A stretch of 64,000 nt of DNA from Plasmodium relictum. Taxonomy: Eukaryota > Apicomplexa > Aconoidasida > Haemosporida > Plasmodiidae. The position numbers and the translations under genes were made by a program. The notes below the pieces were generated by a model. The model searched no databases and had not been told where the DNA came from. It was given only the letters and a program-made list of their open reading frames with translations. The DNA lies in contig NC_041684.1 of NCBI RefSeq assembly GCF_900005765.1, positions 731,042-795,041 on the forward strand, in the 5' to 3' direction. Below are positions 2,779 to 30,226 of the stretch, in pieces. Each line of letters opens with the position of its first letter. The first letter of the stretch is position 1.

Positions 2779-2975
2779 ATGATGTATGTTATTTTATAAA
2801 AAAAAAAAAAAGTTATAATAATGTAAATATATTTTTCTTATCATTTATAAAATTTTTTATAGTTTTTCCCCTTTTTTTATATTTTAATACCACCAGAAGA
2901 AAAGAGAAGTAATAAATTTAGAAATAAAAAAATAAGATTCATATATATATATAACTTATGTTGCTATATATTTAG

Positions 2976-5900
2976 TAAAATTATCAAAAATTTTTTAGAT
3001 GAAAGATTGGAAATAGAACTATGTGAATTTTTAGAAGAAGAACATAGCAAATTAAAAAAGGATAAAACAAATAATGTATGCATATATAATATCGAAAGAG
3101 TAAAAAAAAAATGTATTTATGGTTATAATGAAGAATCAGAAGAATTTTTAAAAATTTATTTTTTAAATCCAAATAGAGTTAATTATTTTGCTAGATTACT
3201 AAAAAAAAAATTATTTAAAAATAGAGTATGGGACTTATATGAAGTTCATATAAATTACATGCTACATTTTTTATGTATGAAAAACATATATGGATGCTCA
3301 GAAATATATGTTGATAAAAATATTTGTTTTAGAAAAGAATTTTTCAATGAAATAAATTTTCAATGTTCTATGAAGGAAGATAAATGGAATATAAAAAAAA
3401 AGTATAACATTGAAAATATCAAAAGTAACAAATATTTAGACATAAATGCTCCTACTCTCTTCACTAACAAAACAACAAATGTTAATTTTTCTCATTTAAA
3501 AAGAGAAACATCATATGATATTGAATGTGATATAAAGCATCAACATATTTTGAATAACATAATTTATTCATATGAATTTCAAAAAAATAAAATAAAATGG
3601 AAAAAAGAATTGTGTTTTAATTTACCTATTAATCACTTAGATTCTTTTTCAAAATTGTGGATTAAGGAAAAAAATAGATGTAAAAATTTGGATTTTAATA
3701 TAAAAAAAGAAATTTTTTATTTTGAAAATAATGAAGATGAATTAAACTATAATTCTTTCGATATACTGACTGATAGAACTAAAAAATTGTTCGACATTTT
3801 TTTAAAATTTATGAGTAAAAGAGGAATAGAAGAAGGAGTTAAAGAAAAAGAAGAAATGGCTGGAGAAAAAGGGGAAACGAATAAAACGATAAAAGGGGTT
3901 AGAGAAAAAAGAGAAGTATCTATAGAAAAAGAAGAAAGAAACAAGGAAATAGAAGAAAAGAAAGAGAAGCAAGATATTTCTTATCCTGCATTAACAGAGA
4001 AAAATTCGATTTTTAATAATAGTAGCATTTTATGTGATAATATTATAAATACCAATCAAATTATGAATTCAGATAATAATTTAAATTATATAATAAATAA
4101 TAATATTATAAGAAACAACAAATTAAATAGCAATAACTCAAATTCAAAAAATACTGAAAATTCGGACTCATTCAATGAACTTAAAAAATTATTTACTAAT
4201 TCAGTTAATTTCTCGGAATCTTATATAGAAAAAAACGACAAAAAAATTTTCGACAGGACAAAAGGTATTCTTACTCCTAGTATTGGTAAGAAGGATGAAA
4301 AACTAGAAGAAAATATTTTAATTAATCATAATGAGAAAAATAATAACTTCATAACTGAAAATAAGAAAAAATTATATTTAAATAATAACAACCATAAAAT
4401 GAATTTAAAAACCAATTTATCACACTCTTACTTACTTAATGAAAAACAAAAGGAAACTTTTTTAGAAAACAATAATAAAAGAAAATGTATAGCATCTTTG
4501 AAGATTAATAATGTAAGAAAAGAAGTTATTAGATATGTTTATAAAAAAAAAGCACCAAAAATAAAAAGATGTTATGCCATTTATGATGATTTAACAATAA
4601 AAAATAAATGTACTAATGGTGAAAATGAGTGCTGTAAAAATGTTGTTTTTAAAAATAAGTTGAAATTAATAAATAACAGTAAAAATATATCTAATAGCAA
4701 AAAAAAAAAGATAAATATAAAGTATGGAAGCTTATTTTTCCTTGAAATTTTAACTGAAATAAAAAATGAAAGTTGCTATTCATCCAATTACAATGATGAT
4801 GAAATAAAGGCTGTTTTTTATTTAATAAGAGATGAAAGATTGATGAATTATTATGAAGATTATAATAATTGCATAGGTATTATAGCTACTAAGCCATTTC
4901 CTGATATCCTAAATTCTTTTAAAGAAAATGAAAAAAAAAAAGAAAAAAAATTAGGATTGTGTTCAAATATGAATTATAATAAAGGTGTTTATATTTGTAG
5001 TGAGAAATTTACAGAGAACCAAGAAAAAGAAAACATAGTAAATATGATAAAAAAGGAATCATCATCGGATAACGAAAAAAATAATGATTTCTTAAATGAT
5101 AATCAAATTTTTTATAATTTTTATATTGATTATGATAATATTAGTATTTGTGTAGTTGAAAATGAAATAGAACTTATAAAAAAATTAATTGATAAAATTA
5201 ATTTTTATTCTCCGTTAAGCATAATTTCTTATGAAAATGATAAATATAATGTTAATTATATTAATCAGAGATGCCTAGCTTTGAAAATAGGAAATTTTTA
5301 TAAACAAATTAGTAAGTTAAATGATCAAATAAATTTTAATGACTTAAATAACATATATAATAAAAACATAAAAGGTAAGGTAATTGAGAGTTTGTATAAA
5401 TTATCCAATATTTCTAATAATTCTTTTGAAAATTTATGTAAGCATTATTTAAAGGTAAATTTGCCCAGTATCAACAAATACACTTTATATTATTGGTATA
5501 GCTTTTGTAAAAAACAACAAAATGATAATTTAATGATCCCAAATAATAAATTAACAAATGATACTAATAACCAATATGCATATTTTCCATATAGATATAT
5601 AACTGTAAAGTATTATTTAATGAGAATATATTTTTTACTATTAATATATGACAAAATAGAGTTTTTAAAAAAAAAAATGAATTTTTGTAAATATATTCAT
5701 GTAGATTTTTTATCCTTAATTAATAGGGGATCTCAATATATTATAGAATCATTTATTCTTAAAATGTGTTTGAAATATGATTATCTTTTATATTCTCCTT
5801 CTAATAAAGAAATATTTAATCAGAGGCCAATTTTGCATACACCTTTAGTACTACAGCCGAAAAGCTCGATTAATTTTTTTCCATTATTAGTTTTTGATTT

Positions 5901-8508
5901 TCATTCATTATATTCATCCATTTTGATTGCTTTTAATATTTGTTTTTCTACATGTATAGGAACATTAACTTTAAAAAAAAATAATAATGAAACAAATCAA
6001 GATGAAGTAATTTTGAAAAATATTCTAAAGGAAACATTTTCAACTAATAAAGGCAGTAACTTCGAACAATCAAAAGAAGATTCTAATGATTTTGAAAACC
6101 ATACATTTATTAAAATTAAATATCAAAATATTGAAAATGTATCATGTAATAATGTAAAGGAGAAAATTACTTCCAACAATATATTAGAACAAGTTAACTG
6201 TGATAACAAATATACAGAAGATTATTTTAATTATAATTATAAAGAAGATTTTAGGGATAAAAAAAATTTTATTGTTGATAAAGAGGAAGAAGAAATACCC
6301 TTTGAATTTATAAAATTAGGTGTAAAAAAAAAAGATAAAAATATTCTGAATAAAATTAAAAATTTAAAGAGCAGTGATATTATTTTAACAAGTAATAATA
6401 CATTGTATGTTAAAAAGCATAAAAGAAAAGGCATATGTTCTCTTTTTCTTGAAGATATTTTAAAAACTAGGATAATGTTAAAAAGATGTATTGAAAAATA
6501 CGATAATAAGGTTACAGAAAGATTAAAAGAAAAGATAGCTAATCTAAAATTAATATTAAATGTTGCTGTTGGTTATATAGGAGCAAATTTTTCAGGAAGA
6601 ATGCCGTGTGTTGATATATCTGAAAGTGTGGTTACTATAGGTAGGAACTTTCTATTTTTCATAATTGAGTATATAAAAAAAAATTATAACTACGTACAAG
6701 TATTATATGGGGATACGGATTCTTTATTTTTATTAAATGAATCAGATGATTTATCATATTCTTTTAAACTCGCTTATGATATTGTAAAAAATATAAATAA
6801 TATTTTGCCAGAACCAATGTATTTAAATTTTGAAAAAATATATTTACCTTCTGTACTTTTAACAAAAAAAAGATACTTTGGTTTTCTATATAAGAATGAA
6901 AAGGAAGAAAAACCAATTCTAGAATTAAAGGGATTAGAGAGTATAAGATCAGATCAGTGCAATTTAGTAAAGAATATACTGATACAAAATTATTTTATTT
7001 TTTATTATTTTAGAAATAATTCTTATTTATCCTATTGTTGTTGTTGTTGTTATCTATGCAGGAATTTTTTTTATAATTTTATTTGTACATGTAAAGAATC
7101 GAATATTCACAAAACATATCCATGCTTTTTATCTAAAGTACTACAAATAATTTTGCATTTGTGTAATAGTAACACATATAATAAGTTAGAAATATCAGAA
7201 GAATCAAATTTTAATGAAAATGATAAGATAAAATTTTATAATCAATTATTGAGATTACTAAATTTTGATGAAAACAATATTTTGTTGAAAATTTTGAACT
7301 TTTTATATAAAGAAAAGTATTCCTTTTTACTTTACATATTTACGAACTTTAATGATAAGGCTTTAAAAGAAGAGATTGAAAAAATAATAGCAAAAAACTA
7401 TACAAAAATAAATAATAAAAAAAGTGATTGCTGCTTAACTAATCCTTATAATATTTTTAAATTTTGTTTATGTGTAAAAGAAATTGATCAAAATAGTAAA
7501 TGCTGCAAAAATAAATGCTTCTGTAATATAAAACAAGGGATATTTTTTTTTAATGAAAAAAATGATAAAATGAATTATGTTTTTAATACAAAAATTTTTT
7601 ACTCTCATTTGTCATTACAATTAAAAAATATTATAAGAGAATTGTTTAATCAAATTTACGATAATAAAATTTCTTATGACAATTTTATAATATATAAAAA
7701 AGTAAAATTAGGTTTATATAAAGAGCAGCAAGGAAATCAAAGAAAAGCATCCTTGCCACCACAAGCAGTAGTTGCTAAAAAAATTTTAAAAAAATTTCCT
7801 TACTTTATTATTTTATATAAAGACAAAATTCCCTATATTATTACTAAAAAATTAAAAGAAGATAAAATTTATAATTCAGTATCTCATCCATTTTTTATTA
7901 AAGGAATACACAAATCTTGTATTTATCTTGAACATTTTGATTATAAGTCTAGTTCTAAAGAAAATAAAAAAGAAGAAGCATCATCAGATAAAATTTGTGA
8001 AAATAATAAAATTTCCTCTAAGGAAAATTTAAAAAAAAAAAAATTAAAAGAAATAAATTTTGAGTATTATATACAAAACTTAATATTACCACCACTTGAA
8101 AGAATGCTAAACTTATTACCTTTTCATTCTATAAACATAAAGGAAATCTTTTATAAAACAAAAAGACAATACAACTATAATAATGAAAGACTAGAATTTT
8201 CTTCAGGAAATTCTCATAATACAAAAAATATTTTAAAAAATAACAAAAAAGTAAAAAGTAAAATAAAAATAAAAATAAATGAAGATGAAGACAAAAAAAT
8301 ACAAAAAAAAATAATTAAAAGTTATGTAGAAATAAGTAAGTCTCAAAATATAATAAAAAATTTAAATAAGATTTGCTTAATGTGCTCTAATTCAGAAATG
8401 GGAGCTTTAGCTTGCCAATATTCAGTACACTGTAAAATATTTTTTAAAAAAGTAATATTACAAGAAAATATTTCAAAGAATCAAGAGATTATAAAACGGT
8501 TTATGTGA
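2976..8508 (+). CDS. REV3: DNA polymerase zeta catalytic subunit (REV3), 5' end incomplete
   Basis: Catalytic subunit of the family-B translesion polymerase, which extends past damaged bases in the nucleus. Counting from position 3007, motif A reads DFHSLYSSI (about residues 964-972), motif B reads NVAVGYIGANFSGRMPC (1185-1201; the SGRMPC tail is typical of Pol zeta), and motif C reads YGDTDS (1234-1239). At the C-terminus a CX2CX9CX5C cluster (Cys 1790, 1793, 1803, 1809) matches CysB, the Fe-S/accessory-subunit site. A four-cysteine CysA before it is not apparent. Long Asn/Lys/Glu-rich insertions bring the length to about 1840 residues. The frame is open from 2863 without an ATG, so a short upstream exon is needed. 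A phase-compatible candidate is ATGAT at 2779-2783, donor GTATGT at 2784, acceptor TTTAG ending at 2975. An alternative start is an ATG at 2555 spliced to the acceptor at 2998. Family assignment is secure; the 5' model is a guess. Confidence 0.9.
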
Positions 8509-12394: not shown

Positions 12395-13864
12395 ATGATT
12401 TACAATAAATATATTAAAAAATTTAAAAATACAAAAAGAAAATATTGTGATGTATTAGAAAATAATGAAAAAGAAATTAACAATCCATCAAATTCTTTTA
12501 TGACTAGAGATTCATTAAGAAATCTTATTTTAAAATACTATTTTAAAATAATTTTAGATAAAATCTACGAAAATTATAAAAAAAATAATTATTTTTTTGA
12601 AATATTTATATATATAGACATTATAAAATTGTAAATGTTTTTATAAAAAGAAGAAAAAGATATAAAATAATTTAATATACATAAATATAAATATATGTAT
12701 ATATTTTTTTTTTAATATAGAATTGATTCAAAAAATTCTATAGGTTATTATATGACGAAAAACTTTGTTGAATTTGTAAATTATTTTAATGAAACTTCAT
12801 ATATTTTATTGTTTGAATTTTTAAAAAATTTTAAAGTAAGAATAAATATATATTTTTTATTTTTATTTAAATAATATATAAAAACTATGAATTATTAGGG
12901 GAACGAACCTTTGAGTGACAAGCTAACAGTATATCTGGATATTGTCATAAAAAATAATTTTTTTACTATTTTTTTAATTCCAATTAATACTCCAATTAAA
13001 GTATGCTTAAAATTATAAAGAGTGAAGAATTAAAATTTAATTTATCATAATTTTTATAATCTTAAACAGAGCAATGCATATATATATGTATTATAAAAAA
13101 ATAATAAAAAATTATTTAGACAGATTGTATCTTAAATCTAGGAAAATCAAATAAATTAGAAAGCAATTTTTATAACGTAATTGAACTAGTTAATGCAACA
13201 TTAATATGTAAAGATAAAAAAAGTTATATATATAAATCTTTTTATATGAGAATTTGCGAATGTGCAAATAAATATTTATCGCATCATAACGTTGTTGTGC
13301 AAACTAATAAACTAGGAGATTTATATGAGTAATTTATACATTCCAAAAAAAAAAAGAAAAAAATAGAATAAATCTAAATTTAATGATTTAAAAAAAGAAG
13401 ATATATATATATATTTAAAAAAAAACATATAATATTAAAAACAGGCCTAATAGCAATTTAATATATGTGTATATATAAATGAGAATATTATATTTTTAGG
13501 AAAAAGGAAGATAAAGAAATATGTAAGTTATGCTATACAAAAGAATATGAAGAAATAATTAGTAAAAGGAAGTTTAAAAACTTTTTCATTTTAAAGTTTT
13601 CTTTTTCTAAAACTATTGATGAATATAATAATAGAGGTTATATTATCATATTTTTTATATAATATTATTACTTTGTATTTATCTCTACTCTTAATAATAC
13701 ATATACTTTTATTTTTATTTATACTTTTATTAAGATGAATATACAACTTTTGAAGTGTTATTTCAAGATATAAATGAAAAAAATGAAAATTTTGAAATTG
13801 GTATGAAATACAATTTAATTATTGTGTCTATTCCTAATAAAGTATATGAATGAATTAAAAAAAC

Positions 13865-13932
<68 letters not shown>

Positions 13933-14072
13933 TATATATGTGTTTTTTTTTTTTATAGTTAAATCAAAATAACATCAAGGGATTGCGTGCTGCTAGTCTT
14001 TGGTTATTGAATTATAGAAAAAATGTTATAATAATAAAAAAAAAAAATTTTAACTAATTTATATATCTTATT

Positions 14073-14117
<45 letters not shown>

Positions 14118-15758
14118 TATTTTTTTTTTCTTTGTAATTTTTTAAGAAAATAAAAAAATTTGAAGATCATATGTTATCCTTATCAACAAATGTAAATACA
14201 TTATTATCTACTGAGTGCTTTAATTATTTACTAAATTCTCAAAACTTATATGGTAATTTATAATTTTTCTTAAAAATATATATAATTTGAAATTTTTTTA
14301 ATTTTTATATGAGCATTTTTTTTAATTATTCTTTAGATATGAATAGTATTATAATTGATATATTAAAACTTCCAAATGATAGTTCTTTTTTAAATAAGAT
14401 TTGTAAAACAACAAAATTAACACTAATTTTAATTAGCATAAGTAATAGCTTTTTAAAATCTTTGAATTTTAATTCTTTTGCTTATGATATATATAATAAA
14501 GTAAATAAAAGGAAATGGCATATGTCTTCTATCAAAGAAAATATTTCAGCAAGTAATTAATGAAAATGAAATTATATTTAACGTTAGAAAATACAATATT
14601 ATCAAATTATGAGAAAATATTTTAAATAACTACTTAATGAATTAAATAAAATTCTATTTTATCTAAATATTTTTTTATATAGAAATGAGAGCTCCACATT
14701 GTTTTTTTATATGCTTAGACGAAATACTAATAATAGAAATGGTTAAGTTTTGCAATTATTTCTGTAATATTAAGCTTCTGGATATGAAAAAAGATTCTTT
14801 TAATATATTACTAACTCAGAAATATGATATACTAGTCATAAATATAAATAATTTAAATAATTCTCAAATTAAATTATTAGTAGAAATCATGAAAAATGGA
14901 ATATACAAGAATAAAAAATTTTTAATTCCAATAACAACTACATTTTGGGTTTATGCCATAAAGTCATTTATAAGAAGTGAACATGTATAAGAATTAAAAA
15001 AAAGATAAAACAAAAAATATATATATATATATTTTGTTTCATATAAAATAATTATATACAAAAAATAAACATTTACAGGAGTTCAACTTGTATATCAGTG
15101 AAAATTTATTGGCTCGTTTTGATTTTTTGTTCGAACTTAGTTTTGAAAAAGAAGAAGATATAATTGATGAATTATTAAGAACAGCGGATGATACTAAAAT
15201 AAAAAATTTCGATTATTATTTTGATTTAAATAACAAATATTCATATTTAAAAAAGAATAATTTATCTTATTTTGAATTTAATGAAATTAGTGATATATCT
15301 AAATCGATTATTCAGAAATATTTTAATATGGCTTCAGATTTGTCAACTCTAACTATGTAAGTTCAAATATATACATATATTCAATAGGAACTTTATATAT
15401 ACATTGCTATTATTTTATTTTTTAATATACGTTTCATAAATATATTTTTTTAGTGAATAATAGGAGATTCACAAATTTATATTTTTTTTTTATTACGTAT
15501 AGATATCATATAGGTATTTCTGAATTATTATGTATCAGTGTGTCTATTTTATTAAAAAAAAAGGAATGCTTAATTGAGCATGTTGTTTTAGGCCTTTTTT
15601 TATATGATAAATTTGTTTCTTCTACCAAAAACAAATTAACGCAATTTGATAAGAATATTTTAAACAATATAATAAGCCCCAAACATAATCAAATTACTTC
15701 ATTTAAGAAATTAATGAATTATTTTTCTTCATATTTAAATGCTACAATGGATTTATAG
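12395..15758 (+). CDS. Divergent MCM-like protein with degenerate ATPase motifs (12 exons)
   Basis: Exons: 12395-12630, 12721-12835, 12899-13000, 13120-13328, 13500-13636, 13735-13841, 13959-14024, 14147-14252, 14337-14552, 14683-14984, 15079-15356, 15464-15758. All phases agree, giving 722 residues and no internal stop. An N-terminal part carries a zinc-binding pattern (Cys197, Cys199 ... Cys229, Cys232) and a segment like the MCM OB-fold (IGMKYNLIIVSIPNK). The ATPase-like part has a segment in the Walker A position with no GKS/GKT (FFICLDEILIIE, 439-450), a Walker B equivalent without the acidic pair (YDILVININNL, 479-489), a sensor-1-like segment (KKFLIPITTTFWVY), then the family's arginine-finger motif NLLARFDFLFEL (Arg545). 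This resembles the pseudo-ATPase MCMDC2 of animals, used in meiotic recombination. MCM8/9-like descent or an unrelated AAA+ protein cannot be excluded. Function is inferred. Confidence 0.62.
13867..13930. repeat. (AT)n microsatellite in an intron
   Basis: An uninterrupted AT dinucleotide run of about 60 bases inside the intron between exons 6 and 7 of the MCM-like gene. It is followed by a T-rich tract and the acceptor ending at 13958. A second shorter (AT)n run lies at about 14081-14114 in the next intron. Both should be highly length-variable. Confidence 0.9.
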
Positions 15759-18881: not shown

Positions 18882-21800
18882 TTACAAAAATGACTCTAAT
18901 TCTTTAGGCAATTTAAATATATATGGAATGTGTAATGAATTAATAAAAAAATTCTTCTTTATTTTTATGCAAAGGTTTTCATTATTATAAAAAAAATAAT
19001 CTGAATAGTTATGATATTTGCAATTTATATATTTTTGAAGTTCCTTTTCTTTTCTTAGAGAAAATGAAAAAATAAAAAATTCTTCATAATACATTTTTAT
19101 TGCATTCATAAGTGTTTCTTCAAAATAAACAAAGCAAGTAAGCATTTCATTGCTATAAATTTCTAATGTAACATCTTTTTTTCTATTTGAATATCTATTT
19201 AATTTAGAATCATCACTGTCTTTTTTTTTTTCTTCCAAAAATCTTTTACACTTTGGAATATGAAATAGTTTACTTGTTTTTAAAAAATAATTTAAGCAAT
19301 CATTGCTTAATGATACAATCATAAAATCAAAATATACTTTAAATTTATGTTTATATAATAAATTATAATAGTAATTTTTTATTTTATTCTCATTTTCTAT
19401 CAACATATTTTTATTAAAAAAAGGTAATTTATTTTGATACAAGTTCATTAAAAATAAAAAAGAAAAATACATTTTTAATTCCTCAATATTTAAATTATTA
19501 ATAAAATATATATTATTTAATAAAAAATTATTGCAATCACCATTAAAAAATGTAGAGTAATAATTGTCCATATTATCAACAGCTCTTTTATGTAATAAAA
19601 AATTTACTTCTTTTTCTTTTTTCTTATTTATGTTTTCTTCTAATTTGCCATTATTTCTCTTTTTTTCAAAGTCTAATATGCTTTCAAAGGTTTTTTTACA
19701 AAATAGAAAAGACGATTCTTCTAATAATAACACAGGTGTTATAAGTATATTTAAAGATATAATAATTTTCTCTTTTATACAAAAAAATGGAAAATTTTGA
19801 TTCAATACTTCAATAAACTTCTTTAATATTTTTTCATTTTTTAATGTTTGAGTGGAGTCAATAGTAACAAGCTCAAAGAAGAAAAAGAAAGTTTTTGTAT
19901 CTTTAATTTTTAAAAGAACTTTATATAAAATTGAATTAAAAAAAAAGAAATTTATCTGATAATTTTTACTTTTCAAAAAATATAAAAAAATTAGTAATAA
20001 ATTTATATCAATACAATTAAAATTATTCAGTATATCTATACATAAATCTTGTAATATACTATCATTAAAATTTATATTAAAATATGAAGAGCAGCAAAAA
20101 ATGGAAATGATATTCATATAATTATATTTTTTTAATTTCATTTCTATTTTTGAATATAACAATTTCAGGAATAAATTTATTGAATTATTATGTTTTGTAT
20201 TTTTCTGTGTATATTTACAAAGTGATAAGAAAATATCAGTGACATCCTTTTCATTATAATGATTTTTATCAAATAGGATTTTTAAGCAAGAGAATAATTT
20301 TACAAATAATTTATCATTTAATAAATTTAAATTTATTAACGAATTTAATAGGATGCAGCAATCATAGACAGTTAATAAATTTAATTGTTTTTCTACTTCG
20401 CATTTTATGTATTCATAAATACTATAATAATTTTTTATGTTTAACTTATTTACATTATAAACAAAAAAACAAAAATCCTTTTTTTTTAATCTAATTATAT
20501 TACAATCTCTTGATAAATATGTATTGTTATTTTTCAAAAAATATTCAATAAGTTCTCCTTTTTCTATGGGACTATGATGACAATTTTTATCATCGCTCTT
20601 GTTCGCATTTCTATATAAATTATAACTATTATTATTAATAGAATCTCTATCAATAGAATATATATAATCATAAAAAGAAAAATTGTCATCGACCTTTATA
20701 TTATCGCTATTTAATATATTACTTTTTATTTTAATTTTTTTTTTTTCTTTTAAATTTAAATTAATGATGAATGATAAAATAATTTCTTTGAAAAAATAAT
20801 CATCTTTAAAATAGTTTTTTCGTAGTACATTCATTAACATATTTAGTGAGCAAATATTTAAATTATATATATTGTGATATAGTTGAAAATTTGTTTGTAA
20901 TAATATATTTTTTATTTTAACTAAGATATAATTTTTGAGTTTTCCTTTCAACTTACTGTAACTGTAAATAAATAAACATAAATGGTTGTAATCTATTTTG
21001 TTAAAGAATAAGAAATAAAGAAAAAGTTTATAAACAATATTTTTTAATTCTTCAATGTTTTCTAAATTTTCTACTTCTTTTAACTTATAATATGTGTTAC
21101 ATATTAATGTTAAATCAAGAAAATTCATATGATTTTTTATATTACTGAAAATTGACATAAAATTTTTATCATCTGTTTTATAAACTAGAGCATTTTTATT
21201 TTTACTAATTATCATATTCCAGTTTTTTTTATTATTTGCTTCATGAATATTTATACTATTATTTAAGTTATCAATTTCATTACTTATACAACTTTTTTCA
21301 CCCTCTAAATTATTGTGTAAGTAAAGATTAAGACTTTTTAATTTTTTTTCTTTTATCTTTTTTCTAACTAACAAAAAAAAATGTTTTTGACTGTTTAAAA
21401 TTAAAATTAAATTATTCGTAAAAGCATTTAAAAAACTTATATTAATATATTTATAAGAATTAACTATACTATAAAAAGATAAAATTATTTGTTTTAAGCT
21501 CATATTAAAAATAAAATCTATAGTATCAGTATTAACTATATTTTTCCAAAAGCTATTATCATAAAATTTTTTTTTACTTAATAAATGAATTATTATAGAA
21601 AAATCATTTTCTGTTAGTTTTTTTTTTTTTAGTAGATACAAAAATTCATCACTAAATTTATATAAACTACATAAATCATCTTTTCTACAAAATTTTCTTA
21701 TTTTTCTAACCAATTCAGATTGTTCATAACTTATGATATTTTCATCTTTTATGTTTTCGTTCTTTCTCTTTCCATTTTCTGTATGTCTATTTTTTTTATC

Positions 21801-22043
21801 TCTGTTTGATAATTCATTTATTCCATTTATTGAAGTATTTATTACTTTATCATTTTTCTTGTTTCCTTTTATTATGTTATCATCAAAAAGTACACTTCCA
21901 AAACTTTTATTTTTATCATCTTCTTTTACGCTTGTGTTAAATTTTCTGATTTCTTTTTTTTTATTAAAGCTTATTGGAGTATTTAAAAATCTATCTAATC
22001 GTATTGTTAATTTTATAATGTTACATTTTTTTAAATATTTCAT
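18882..22043 (-). CDS. Large helical-repeat protein, probably mitochondrial (HPR-like)
   Basis: A 1053-residue single-exon protein. The first about 45 residues (MKYLKKCNIIKLTIRLDRFL, then a basic stretch ending RKFNTS) look like a mitochondrial presequence: basic, Ser/Thr/Asn-containing and without acids. Most of the rest consists of repeated amphipathic helices rich in Leu, Ile, Phe, Lys and Asn, for example around 300-440 and 560-780, with repeats of a form like LLNSLINLNLLNDKLF. This resembles the heptatricopeptide/FAST-kinase-like helical repeat proteins that apicomplexans use for organellar RNA. I see no clear C-terminal RAP domain. The family call rests on helix pattern only. It may instead be simply an unclassified conserved protein. 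Confidence 0.45.
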   Translation of the reverse strand: MKYLKKCNIIKLTIRLDRFLNTPISFNKKKEIRKFNTSVKEDDKNKSFGSVLFDDNIIKGNKKNDKVINTSINGINELSNRDKKNRHTENGKRKNENIKDENIISYEQSELVRKIRKFCRKDDLCSLYKFSDEFLYLLKKKKLTENDFSIIIHLLSKKKFYDNSFWKNIVNTDTIDFIFNMSLKQIILSFYSIVNSYKYINISFLNAFTNNLILILNSQKHFFLLVRKKIKEKKLKSLNLYLHNNLEGEKSCISNEIDNLNNSINIHEANNKKNWNMIISKNKNALVYKTDDKNFMSIFSNIKNHMNFLDLTLICNTYYKLKEVENLENIEELKNIVYKLFLYFLFFNKIDYNHLCLFIYSYSKLKGKLKNYILVKIKNILLQTNFQLYHNIYNLNICSLNMLMNVLRKNYFKDDYFFKEIILSFIINLNLKEKKKIKIKSNILNSDNIKVDDNFSFYDYIYSIDRDSINNNSYNLYRNANKSDDKNCHHSPIEKGELIEYFLKNNNTYLSRDCNIIRLKKKDFCFFVYNVNKLNIKNYYSIYEYIKCEVEKQLNLLTVYDCCILLNSLINLNLLNDKLFVKLFSCLKILFDKNHYNEKDVTDIFLSLCKYTQKNTKHNNSINLFLKLLYSKIEMKLKKYNYMNIISIFCCSSYFNINFNDSILQDLCIDILNNFNCIDINLLLIFLYFLKSKNYQINFFFFNSILYKVLLKIKDTKTFFFFFELVTIDSTQTLKNEKILKKFIEVLNQNFPFFCIKEKIIISLNILITPVLLLEESSFLFCKKTFESILDFEKKRNNGKLEENINKKKEKEVNFLLHKRAVDNMDNYYSTFFNGDCNNFLLNNIYFINNLNIEELKMYFSFLFLMNLYQNKLPFFNKNMLIENENKIKNYYYNLLYKHKFKVYFDFMIVSLSNDCLNYFLKTSKLFHIPKCKRFLEEKKKDSDDSKLNRYSNRKKDVTLEIYSNEMLTCFVYFEETLMNAIKMYYEEFFIFSFSLRKEKELQKYINCKYHNYSDYFFYNNENLCIKIKKNFFINSLHIPYIFKLPKELESFL

Positions 22044-26846: not shown

Positions 26847-28075
26847 ATGAAAAAATTTGAAGATGTAAATAATTATACTACAAAGAGTTCACATAAAAAA
26901 AACTATTATAAGAGAAAAGATATTTTAAATGAAAACTATTATGCAAAAAATGTAAAACGACGAAAATTAAAGGCTTCTAAAAAATTGTAAGTTGAAAAAA
27001 TTAGTATATGGTTTTTGTTTTTATATTTCTTTTATTAAAAGTAAATTACAATATAATAATATATCTATATAGTATCACTTAAATAAGTTATTAACAAAAG
27101 AAAATTAAGATGATTAAGTTCATAATTAATACCTAATTATATGTATTAAGGAGAAATATATATATATAATGTTGTTTCTCTTTCATATTTTAATCTTTTT
27201 TTGAAATTATCGTCTTTGATTTTTATCATTTAACTTCTAATTTTTTTTTTTTTTTTTTTGGTAGAGAAAGTAGCCCCAATGGAGGTTTTACTAAAAAAGT
27301 GAAAAATAAATTTAAAGAATTTTATGAAATGCATTTTGATAAAAAAGTAATAAATTTACCATTTAGTGCTGACTCTATAAATATACAGCAAAAAGGGTTT
27401 CATGATTATAGTAAAGATATGAAATTAAAAAAAAATCATATGAATAAACCAATGTGGATATGCTCAGATGGATTTATATATTTAGAGATGTTTAATAGTT
27501 GCAGTAAGCAAGCATCTGATTTTCTTATTACCATAGCTGAGCCCATATGTAGACCTGAGTTAATTCATGAATTCCAATTAACTATTTTTTCTTTATATGC
27601 TGCAATATCTGTAGGTATTACACTTGATGAATTATTAATAAATTTAGATAAGTTTTCTAAGAATGTTCTTCCTAAAGAATTAGTTTATAATATTACTAAA
27701 AGTGCAGAATCTTTTGGCAAAGTTAAATTAGTTTTAAGAGAAAATAAATATTATATTGAAGCTGCAAATAAATCAGAATTAGATTATTTATTAAATAATA
27801 ATTCTATAAAAAATGCAAGAATATATTCTAATGATAATAATGAACAGAAAATAAGAGGTATATGCAATTTGAATAATAATACATTAGAAGAAAAATTTAA
27901 GGAGAATAATAATAATAATAATAATAATGAAAATAGTAATGATAATAATGAAATTATTAATAATAATGATAAAAATAAAATTAATAATAATAACATTAAC
28001 AATGATAATAATAATAATAATAATGAAAATAGTAATGATAATAATGAAATTATTAATAATAATGATAAAAATAAA

Positions 28076-28164
<89 letters not shown>

Positions 28165-30226
28165 AATTATTAATAATAATGATAAAAGTGAAATTAATAA
28201 TAACATTAATAACGATAATAATAATAATACAAACAATTTTTTAAATGAAAAATGTAATGAAAAAAAGAAAGAAGAATCTTATGTAACATATGAAGCACCT
28301 GTATTAGATACTACTCAACTAGGTTATAAAAATTATTTTTCTTTTTTTTTTTTTTTTTGATGTTGATACATATTTTTACTATTTATGTAATTCTCTTTGC
28401 ATATATACATAGTTTTTTTTAATTTTACTATACATGCTTATAATAAAAATAAAAAAATTTATGGACTTTTTTTTTTTAAAATAGGATTCAAGATAAGTGA
28501 AAGTGAAAAACAATTAATTTTTCAAGAAAAAAAAAATATAAATGAAAATATAAATGAGAATTTAGGAAACTCATCAGAAGTATACTCTTTTGAAGTGAAT
28601 TGTGATAAGATAGAAGAAGTAAAGCAAGAAGCATTACAAACTATGCAAAGACCATTATTAATGGAATATGATTTTAGAAGAGATAAAAAAAATCCTAATT
28701 TAATTTGTTCTTTAAAAAGCCATGTGCAAATAAGATATTATCAAGAAAAAGCATTGAGAAAAATGTTCAGCAATGGAAGAAGTAGGTCAGGTATAATAGT
28801 TTTACCTTGCGGTGTAGGTAAAACCCTAACAGGTATAACGGCAGCTAGTACAATTAAAAAGTCAGCATTATTTTTAACAACATCAGCAGTAGCAGTTGAA
28901 CAATGGAAAAAGCAATTTGAAGATTTTACGAATATTCATCCAAGACATTTAAGAATATTAACATCAGATTATAAGTTTGATTTATGGCCTATTAACGAAG
29001 CAGGTGTGTTAATTTCTACATATACTATGTTGTCATATTCAGGTAAGAGAAGTGAGCAAAGTTTAAAAATTGTTAATGATATAAGGAGAAGAGAATGGGG
29101 ATTATTAGTATTTGATGAAGTTCAATTTGCACCTGCACCATCTTTTAGAAGAATAAATGATATTGTGAAATCTCATTGTAAACTTGGTTTAACAGCAACT
29201 TTAGTAAGAGAAGATTTGCTAATTCGAGATTTACATTGGATTATTGGGCCCAAATTATATGAAGCTAATTGGGTAGAATTACAAAATAAAGGATTTCTAG
29301 CTAAAGCTTTGTGTAAAGAAATATGGTGCAGTATGCCTGGTTCTTTTTATAAATATTATTTAAAGTCAAATAGTTTTATTAAAAGAAGATTATATACATG
29401 TAATCCTAAAAAATTAATGATGTGTGAATATTTAATTAAATATCATGAACAGAATAATGACAAAATTATAGTTTTTAGTGATAATATTTTTGCTTTGTTA
29501 CATATTGCTAAAACATTGAACAAACCATTTATATATGGAAAGTTGTCACCAATTGAAAGAATTGCTATCATAAATAAATTTAAAAATGATTCTTCTATCA
29601 ATACTATTTTATTAAGTAAAGTTGGAGATAATGCAATTGATATACCTATTGCAAATGTTGTTATTCAAATTTCTTTTAATTTCGCATCAAGAAGACAAGA
29701 AGCTCAAAGATTAGGAAGAATTATTAGACCTAAAAATAAGGCCAATGAAAAAAAGAATATAAATGAACCTGACTCTTTTTTTTATAGTTTGGTAAGTAAA
29801 GATACAATTGAAATGTGCTACTCTGATAAAAGACAACAATTTCTTATTAATCAAGGGTACGCGTATAATGTTCATAGTGATAATATTGTTGATTTTAATA
29901 AATTAAACTTAGTTTATAAAAATAAAAAAATTCAAGAAAATTTATTAAAATGCATTCTAGCTAGTACAGATGATGGAAACATGGATGAAGATGATGACTT
30001 ATTTGAAGATCAAAATTTTAACAAAGAAAATTCCAAAACTAATAAAAGTAACTTTAATGGCACTTTAAGTAAAAAAGAAGATACTTTAAAAAAAGTAGAT
30101 AATGGGGGATTATTAAAATTATCATCCAATATAGATGTAACCTTTAATGATAAAAAAAAAAATGCACCAAAAAAGTTTGCTGATAAACATATTCTTTTTA
30201 GAAAATTTTTAAATCAAAATAAATAA
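26847..30226 (+). CDS. XPB: DNA repair helicase XPB/ERCC3 (TFIIH subunit), three exons
   Basis: 3'-5' translocase of TFIIH, used in promoter opening and nucleotide excision repair. Exons 26847-26986, 27265-28322 and 28485-30226 join in phase to 979 residues. The start ATG opens a basic N-terminus (KKFEDVNNYTTK). Helicase motifs by residue: I, GVGKT (509-513); II, DEVQ (610-613; human XPB has DEVH); III, LTATL; the XPB-specific RED motif, R641-E642-D643; VI, QRLGRIIRP (807-815). The N-terminal damage-recognition-like domain (MWICSDGFIYLEMFNSCSKQ onward) precedes a long Asn-rich spacer at about 265-375. The second intron is 162 bases with a T-run directly after the donor. The protein is longer than human XPB (782 residues), mainly because of the spacer. 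Confidence 0.95.
27904..28236 (+). repeat. Poly-Asn coding repeat with internal duplication in XPB
   Basis: AAT/GAT-codon tract in exon 2 of XPB. It contains two near-identical blocks of about 95 bases beginning near 27907 and 28006 (both read ENSNDNNEIINNNDKNKINN), a pure (AAT)n run at about 28077-28161, and a third partial copy (NEIINNNDKSEINNN). The opposite-strand and shifted frames in the tract are artefacts of the repeat. Confidence 0.92.

What the first reader, a model, noticed from the sequence alone, without database searches (positions are those of the whole stretch)
12395..15758. Twelve-exon MCM-family pseudo-ATPase in Plasmodium
Joining 12 phase-compatible exons gives a 722-residue protein with an MCM-like zinc motif, sensor and arginine-finger motif (LLARFD). 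The Walker A position lacks GK[ST] and the Walker B acidic pair is missing. This is the pattern of MCMDC2, a meiotic recombination protein in animals. A non-hydrolysing MCM paralog next to housekeeping genes would be a notable candidate meiosis or replication factor in the parasite.
Basis: partly seen in the sequence, partly recalled or inferred. Interest (0 to 1): 0.75.

Follow-up and report, generated by a model that had tools for sequence, protein, structure and literature searches.

The report
Unannotated MCM pseudo-ATPase in malaria parasites
A malaria-parasite gene filed as "unknown function" looks like a dead-motor member of the MCM helicase family, closest to the animal meiosis protein MCMDC2, which makes it a testable candidate for how the parasite controls meiotic recombination.

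Summary
The 12-exon gene at 12395-15758 is real. The best splice model gives 709 residues, not 722, and equals the public Plasmodium relictum record "conserved Plasmodium protein, unknown function". Pfam and PDB sequence searches give no MCM hit.

MCM origin rests on partial lines that agree. A low-confidence AlphaFold model built from family members only matches MCM entries in 49 of 50 listed VIA-align rows. Best profile matches fall in register with the MCM arginine finger/lid (10 of 13 members) or zinc finger (3 of 13). The arginine-finger block beats 683 other windows.

The Walker A Lys is Ile/Met and the Walker B Glu is Asn in 17 of 17. The sensor-1 strand carries the [ST]FW of MCMDC2 (17 of 17; 119 of 120 MCMDC2; 0 of 63 canonical MCMs). 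Unlike mammalian MCMDC2, the arginine finger is kept and the Walker A to arginine-finger stretch is about 30 residues short.

Best reading: an MCMDC2-like subunit of a meiotic MCM complex with MCM8/MCM9, in a parasite lacking MSH4/MSH5. Partners, timing and function are inferred.

The parts
12395..12630 (+). exon 1; start of the MCM N-terminal A-domain-like region (residues about 33-150, exons 1-3)
12721..12835 (+). exon 2
12899..13000 (+). exon 3 (end of A-domain-like region)
13120..13328 (+). exon 4; first zinc pair Cys197 (13255-13257) and Cys199 (13261-13263)
13500..13636 (+). exon 5; second zinc pair Cys229 (13522-13524) and Cys232 (13531-13533)
   Evidence: the second pair aligns with the MCM C-x2-C in three members
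13735..13841 (+). exon 6 (OB-fold-like strands, inferred)
13959..14024 (+). exon 7
14147..14252 (+). exon 8
14337..14552 (+). exon 9 (leads into the AAA+ domain)
14683..14984 (+). exon 10; degenerate AAA+ core: Walker A Lys position Ile448 (14730-14732), Walker B position Asn487-Asn488 (14847-14852), sensor-1 strand with Phe519-Trp520 (14943-14948) and Lys525 (14961-14963)
15079..15356 (+). exon 11; arginine finger Arg545 (15115-15117) in NLLARFDFLF; start of the MCM lid (from about 15274)
15503..15758 (+). exon 12; rest of the MCM lid (to about 15611, residue 661), C-terminus and stop

Best explanation
The gene encodes an MCM-family pseudo-ATPase of the MCMDC2 (MEI-217/MEI-218) type. Supported by computation here: MCM layout (A-domain, zinc finger, AAA+ core, arginine finger, lid), loss of the ATP-binding and hydrolysing residues, about 30 residues missing between Walker A and the arginine finger (17-21 of them before Walker B, where MCMs carry the helix-2 insert), an MCMDC2-like sensor-1 strand, and a retained arginine finger. 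Inferred: it does not hydrolyse ATP or unwind DNA itself, but sits in a ring or part-ring beside a working MCM, most likely MCM8 (or MCM9), and gives its arginine finger to that neighbour's ATP site while its zinc/OB half holds single-stranded DNA. In the zygote/ookinete it would help form or stabilise strand-invasion intermediates, a job of MSH4-MSH5 in many eukaryotes that is vacant in Plasmodium, much as REC-MEI-217-MEI-218 does in flies. My separate estimates: MCM origin 0.93; MCMDC2 type 0.7 (lowered from 0.75 in my draft after a corrected alignment cut tree support from 98 to 89); meiotic role 0.55; arginine finger acting in trans 0.4.
For: Identity and conservation. Fold: AF2 from 13 family members only, no templates, no MCM rows; in VIA-align's second look 49 of 50 listed rows are MCM or MCM-containing replisome entries (chains labelled 2-7 read as MCM2-7), including A-domain rows at 2.7-3.9 A over 88-103 residues and archaeal SsoMCM over residues 427-551 at 3.7 A; the other row is ClpC. 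Register: the best HHalign match of each of 13 members to a 75-sequence MCM profile is in register (10 on arginine finger/lid, two of these spanning the AAA+ core; 3 on the zinc finger), whereas the ten best of 65 P. relictum ORF controls align 14-50 columns. Family profile score 38.9 against at most 27.1 in 30 column shuffles. Blocks: arginine finger z 7.7 vs P. relictum MCMs, 7.1 vs archaeal, 6.1 vs MCMDC2, no better window of 683; sensor 1 z 9.8 vs MCMDC2 against at most 3.1 vs other MCMs over five shifts tried. [ST]FW anywhere in the protein: 17 of 17, 119 of 120, 0 of 63. Lys-to-Arg spacing 97 in 15 of 17 against 126-130 in 62 of 63 canonical MCMs. Tree: joined with MCMDC2 at UFBoot 99 with the first block alignment, 84 on the arginine-finger/lid segment alone, 89 with corrected Walker B block and no sensor block. 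Partners: MCM8 (L007, best PDB match MCM8, E 1.8e-101) and MCM9 (L008, E 8.7e-74) are encoded here. MutS: three matches, nearest MSH2, MSH2 and MSH6; Malik et al. [quoted passage not shown] Alveolate precedent: Tetrahymena Mcmd1 (PMC6922451, passages and section 7).
Against: Mean pLDDT 39.7. Foldseek gave no match at E <= 0.001; its top rows are MDA5 and the first MCM is rank 5 at E 0.16. VIA-align Z (6.6-8.5) is in the range the tool calls middling. No Pfam MCM, MCM_lid or PF26063 hit in 13 members at E <= 10; the commonest weak hit is Herpes_HEPA (7 of 13, best E 0.0018). HHalign against mammalian MCMDC2 alone has probability 0.3%, not above 20 column shuffles (up to 0.5%); against the eight P. 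relictum MCMs 1.2% (shuffles up to 0.9%); against the deep profile 20.9%, while mammalian MCMDC2 reaches 99.2% against a profile of archaeal and P. relictum MCMs. One control of 65 scored 32.9, above 11 of the 13 single members; two more scored 30.8 and 29.5. The Walker A block is no closer to MCMDC2 (z 3.3) than to archaeal MCM (z 4.4); Walker B reaches only z 2.6-3.2 after realignment. The tree joins the two longest branches; without MCMDC2 the family's place is unresolved (34). Mammalian MCMDC2 lacks the arginine finger. No expression, interaction or phenotype data.
Confidence: 0.6

Rival explanations
1. A haemosporidian-specific decayed copy of a replicative MCM, MCM8 or MCM9, which lost its ATPase on its own and resembles MCMDC2 at the sensor-1 strand by convergence.
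For: Arginine-finger block slightly closer to P. relictum MCMs (z 7.7) than to MCMDC2 (z 6.1), Walker A closest to archaeal MCM; arginine finger kept; profile comparison with MCMDC2 alone is no better than shuffles; unresolved position without MCMDC2 in the tree; both protein searches returned the same 17 proteins, none outside Haemosporida among the 16 with a name.
Against: Sensor-1 block z 9.8 against MCMDC2 and at most 3.1 against other MCMs; clade with MCMDC2 persists without the sensor-1 block (89) and on the arginine-finger/lid segment (84); MCM8, MCM9 and six further MCM genes, presumably MCM2-7, exist besides it.
Confidence: 0.22
2. An MCM-like pseudo-subunit used in DNA replication, for example in the fast genome replication of male gametogenesis or schizogony, and not in meiosis.
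For: MCM family; Plasmodium has unusual replication cycles (general knowledge). The nearby DNA polymerase B gene is no evidence of shared function.
Against: The pseudo-ATPase MCMs studied in mouse, fly and Tetrahymena act in meiotic recombination (PMC5070785, PMC6553819, PMC6922451; passages).
Confidence: 0.2
3. Not an MCM: another AAA+ or P-loop-like protein whose composition and a chance LLARFD give an MCM-like look.
For: Foldseek alone is not significant and ranks MDA5 first; Pfam and PDB sequence searches show no MCM.
Against: Separate stretches (A-domain, zinc finger, arginine finger, lid) match MCMs in the right order and register.
Confidence: 0.06
4. A decaying or mis-modelled gene.
For: Some public models are partial or altered (P0002, P0013, P0014-P0017).
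Against: 14 of 17 homologues are 695-720 residues long, at 55-83% identity to P. relictum across Plasmodium and Hepatocystis, with many invariant motif residues.
Confidence: 0.02

Closest known systems
MCMDC2 (mammals) / MEI-217 + MEI-218 (Drosophila)
   Same: MCM layout with dead Walker A and B; [ST]FW in the sensor-1 strand; a degenerate P-loop of similar look (ICSDEIIMT in P. berghei, ITSDTLLVD in mouse)
   Different: Arginine finger kept here, lost in the 12 mammalian sequences aligned; Walker A to Walker B is 39 residues here. Only mammalian MCMDC2 could be compared, MEI-217/MEI-218 not at all
Tetrahymena Mcmd1
   Same: Alveolate MCM-domain protein with putative zinc finger and probably no ATPase (PMC6922451, section 7 and passages)
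   Different: Its sequence was not fetched, so orthology is untested
MCM8 (REC) and MCM9
   Same: MCM family, recombination roles (papers, passages); both encoded in this genome
   Different: Intact Walker A, Walker B, sensor 1 and canonical spacing
MCM2-7 and archaeal MCM
   Same: A-domain, zinc finger, arginine finger and lid register
   Different: 63 of 63 canonical sequences keep Walker A Lys, Walker B Asp-Glu, sensor-1 Asn and the arginine finger

Membership tests
MCM superfamily | N-terminal A-domain fold | tested here: met
   VIA-align rows at 2.7-3.9 A over 88-103 residues, all MCM entries; model blocks 31-150 have pLDDT 50-86; Z middling
MCM superfamily | zinc-binding cysteine pairs in the N-terminal half | tested here: met
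   C-x-C and C-x2-C in 15 of 17 (not in P0013, altered model, nor P0016, partial); second pair aligns with MCM C-x2-C; first pair atypical; metal binding untested
MCM superfamily | arginine finger [SA]RFD after the sensor-1 strand | tested here: met
   ARFD in 16 of 17; block z 7.7, 0 of 683 windows better
MCM superfamily | MCM lid (helices after the arginine finger) | tested here: met
   HHalign in register, residues 521-660, 10 of 13 single members; significance modest
MCM superfamily | significant match to curated MCM profiles | tested here: not met
   no Pfam MCM match at E <= 10 in 13 members; a detection criterion, not an anatomical one
MCM2-7 / MCM8 / MCM9 | intact Walker A Lys, Walker B Asp-Glu and sensor-1 Asn | tested here: not met
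   Lys is Ile/Met in 17 of 17; Glu is Asn in 17 of 17 and Asp is Asn in 12, Gly in 3, Ser in 1, Asp in 1; no Asn in the sensor-1 strand of P. relictum
MCMDC2 | MCM with non-conserved Walker A and B (PMC5070785, PMC6553819, passages) | tested here: met
   17 of 17
MCMDC2 | [ST]FW in the sensor-1 strand (feature found here, not a published definition) | tested here: met
   17 of 17 vs 119 of 120 MCMDC2 hits and 0 of 63 canonical; z 9.8
MCMDC2 | groups with MCMDC2 in a tree | tested here: inconclusive
   support 99, 98, 89 and 84 in four alignments, but the two longest branches and only mammals sampled
MCMDC2 | PF26063, listed for the mammalian MCMDC2 hits | tested here: inconclusive
   no hit in 13 members; divergence may exceed that model's reach
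MCMDC2 | arginine finger lost (state of the mammalian sequences, not known to define the family) | tested here: not met
   Arg kept here; Ala, Thr or Val in 12 of 12 mammalian MCMDC2 aligned
MCMDC2 | meiotic expression and requirement for meiotic recombination | not testable with these tools
   no expression or phenotype data

The most novel reading that the evidence does not exclude
Malaria parasites run a mei-MCM complex in which a pseudo-MCM with a trimmed AAA+ core donates only an arginine finger to MCM8/MCM9, so that strand-exchange intermediates are held rather than unwound. With MSH4, MSH5 and MER3 absent, this complex would stand in for MutS-gamma, as the fly mei-MCM complex is proposed to do, giving two lineages that reached the same solution.
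Probability: 0.3. Interest if true: 0.78.

Novelty: new variant of a known kind. Interest (0 to 1): 0.6.

Why it matters
Meiosis in Plasmodium takes place in the mosquito and shuffles parasite genotypes, yet how crossovers are made without MSH4-MSH5 is open (general knowledge and PMC2488364). This gives a likely identity to a conserved "unknown function" gene, suggests a complex with MCM8/MCM9, and offers a knockout with a clear prediction. Searches of the held library: MCMDC2 with Plasmodium found one paper, a tularemia study by its title; MCMDC2 with Apicomplexa and mei-218 with Plasmodium found none; PF3D7_1037200, the P. falciparum name inferred from PGSY75_1037200, found none. Supplements and papers outside that library were not searched.

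Tried and rejected
Sequence searches of PDB (one chance beta-agarase match, E 0.29) and Pfam gave no MCM. Seven of 13 members weakly match Herpes_HEPA (best E 0.0018); not pursued. A profile search of the protein database returned the same 17 proteins, so no bridge to coccidians or ciliates was found; that reflects the word-based search as much as biology. MAFFT of the family with mammalian MCMDC2 misplaces the Walker A segment, so it was not used. Foldseek alone was not significant. The 722-residue splice form was rejected for the 709-residue one. My first Walker B placement (Asn485-Ile486) was two residues off; HHalign and a shift scan (3, 8 and 6 better windows of 684 at shift 2, against 61, 24 and 29 at shift 0) place it at Asn487-Asn488. 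The trees used the first placement; the corrected tree without the sensor block gives 89 instead of 98 and no link to MCM9. Rows dropped before counts: 55 of 80 archaeal loci passed the length and motif filter, 21 of 55 archaeal MCMs did not parse, 7 of 63 canonical MCMs and 1 of 12 MCMDC2 did not parse, and 12 of 17 family members were used; one search used 13 of 17, 62 of 63 canonical gave a Lys-to-Arg spacing; trees hold 33 sequences (12 archaeal, 8 P. relictum, 6 MCMDC2, 7 family). The MCMDC2 hits are the best 120 of 531. Block positions were chosen after seeing the alignment; the sliding null does not cover that choice. No tRNA or Rfam match in the window.

Full report
What is there. The window lies at G000:C6:731042-795041 of a 22.6-Mb assembly. 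The gene at 12395-15758 has twelve exons; with exon 12 starting at 15503 it encodes 709 residues, identical to the public Plasmodium relictum protein "conserved Plasmodium protein, unknown function" (P0001). Sixteen more proteins match, 15 named as Plasmodium or Hepatocystis and one unnamed (P. gallinaceum 83%, P. gaboni 71%, down to P. ovale curtisi 55%). All matches in the assembly lie at this gene. By ORF and Pfam the neighbours in order are a family B DNA polymerase, pyruvate kinase, this gene, a mitochondrial carrier, an unassigned ORF, a dynamin and XPB. The P. gaboni tag PGSY75_1037200 suggests PF3D7_1037200 in P. falciparum (inference; the recalled gene order agrees).

Is it an MCM? 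Standard sequence tools find no MCM. The first positive sign is structural: AlphaFold with 13 family members, without templates or MCM rows, gave a poor model (mean pLDDT 39.7; blocks 31-150 at 50-86), yet among the chains pre-ranked by Foldseek, 49 of the 50 listed VIA-align rows are MCM or MCM-containing replisome entries, with A-domain alignments at 2.7-3.9 A and an AAA+ alignment to SsoMCM at 3.7 A over 123 residues. Foldseek's own E-values are not significant, and the long VIA-align rows have rmsd of 12-16 A, so domain placement is not modelled.

The second sign is register. Against a profile of 55 archaeal MCMs, 8 P. relictum MCMs and 12 mammalian MCMDC2, the family profile scores 38.9 (E 0.0011, probability 20.9%), with residues 521-660 on the stretch from sensor 1 through arginine finger to lid; 30 column shuffles reach at most 27.1. 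For scale, mammalian MCMDC2 reaches 99.2% against archaeal plus P. relictum MCMs, and the family against mammalian MCMDC2 alone (0.3%) is not above shuffles. Taken one by one, 10 of 13 members align best on the arginine-finger/lid stretch (two from residue 430 or 431 across the core) and 3 of 13 on the zinc finger, C-x2-C on C-x2-C. The ten best of 65 ORF pieces from the same genome align 14-50 columns, the two strongest at the Walker A columns. One control (32.9) outscores 11 of the 13 single members, so score alone does not separate them; length and register do.

The third sign is motif blocks compared with the other windows of the protein. The arginine-finger block scores z 7.7, 7.1 and 6.1 against P. 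relictum MCMs, archaeal MCM and MCMDC2, with no better window of 683. Walker A scores z 3.1-4.4 (0-4 better of 670). Walker B, at its corrected place, scores z 2.6-3.2 (3-8 better of 684).

What kind of MCM? HHalign of the P. berghei member places its Walker A segment on GDPGTGKSQ and its INNF on IDEF (the same for the P. yoelii member). So the Walker A Lys is Ile or Met in 17 of 17, the Walker B Glu is Asn in 17 of 17, and the Asp is Asn in 12, Gly in 3, Ser in 1 and still Asp in 1 (Hepatocystis). All 63 canonical MCMs keep them; 12 mammalian MCMDC2 do not. The sensor-1 strand is the telling part: canonical MCMs read AAANP-like, this family PI(S/T)TTFW or close to it, and mammalian MCMDC2 FPVQCSFW. 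[ST]FW occurs in 17 of 17, 119 of 120 and 0 of 63, and the block scores z 9.8 against MCMDC2 but at most 2.0 and 3.1 against P. relictum and archaeal MCMs over five shifts. The residue that answers to the sensor-1 Asn is uncertain (Lys525 by HHalign, Phe519 in my block); MAFFT also sets the MCMDC2 FW a few columns beyond the Asn. A tree joins the family to MCMDC2: UFBoot 99 with all blocks, 98 without sensor 1 and 84 on the arginine-finger/lid segment, 89 with Walker B corrected and no sensor block. Both are very long branches and only mammals were sampled, so long-branch attraction is possible.

What differs. The Walker A Lys to arginine finger spans 97 residues in 15 of 17 (88 in P0002, none in P0014) against 126-130 in 62 of 63 canonical MCMs. 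Lys to the Walker B Asp position is 39 (37 plus the two-residue correction) against 56-60 in 42 of 63 that parsed. Most of the loss thus lies where MCMs carry the helix-2 insert; about 11 more residues are missing between Walker B and the arginine finger, partly at the pre-sensor-1 hairpin (HHalign gaps). The Tetrahymena paper describes loss of the motifs for ATPase activity, unwinding and DNA binding as a trait of meiotic MCM-domain proteins (PMC6922451, section 7). The arginine finger, lost in mammalian MCMDC2, is kept here in 16 of 17; the exception, P0014, has a different stretch there, probably a model error.

How it may work. MCMDC2 is thought unlikely to be an ATPase and to modulate complexes with MCM8 (PMC5070785, passages); in flies REC (MCM8) has the conserved Walker motifs and MEI-217/MEI-218 do not (PMC6553819, passages). 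This genome encodes MCM8 and MCM9 and six further MCMs, presumably MCM2-7, RAD51 and a multi-exon second RAD51-family gene read as DMC1 (names inferred), and three MutS matches nearest to MSH2, MSH2 and MSH6. Liu et al. list MCM8 and MCM9 for Toxoplasma, their loss in Cryptosporidium, and left P. berghei out as too divergent (PMC2667178, passages). Malik et al. [quoted passage not shown] I therefore propose an MCMDC2-like non-hydrolysing subunit that completes a neighbour's ATP site through Arg545 and steadies strand-invasion intermediates. Pseudo-ATPase subunits that keep a trans arginine finger are known elsewhere, for example Rfc5 in clamp loaders (recalled). None of the interaction, timing or function is shown.

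Verdict. An unannotated, probably MCMDC2-like MCM pseudo-ATPase conserved in haemosporidians: a variant of a known kind, filed as "MCMDC2-like" rather than as a proven orthologue, with good experimental handles and an open meiotic role.

Noticed in passing
window 18885-22043 (-): A 1053-residue open frame between the mitochondrial carrier and the dynamin gene has no Pfam match at E <= 0.001.
   Followed up: no
window 2863-8505 (+): An 1881-residue family B DNA polymerase with a POL3_N domain; its length and domains suggest the polymerase zeta catalytic subunit (inference).
   Followed up: partly
window 27194-30223 (+): XPB-type helicase over two adjacent open frames about 30 bases apart, presumably with a short intron.
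   Followed up: no
L089, L090: Two separate genes both nearest to MSH2 in PDB, plus one MSH6 (L091); Malik et al. also list two Msh2 for Plasmodium.
   Followed up: partly
alignment A1 (P0001-P0013): Seven of 13 orthologues weakly match Pfam Herpes_HEPA (best E 0.0018).
   Followed up: no
P0013, P0002 and P0014: The public P. knowlesi model replaces the second zinc pair with unrelated residues, the P. gallinaceum model lacks nine residues after the sensor-1 strand, and the P. ovale curtisi model lacks the arginine finger; all look like gene-model errors.
   Followed up: no
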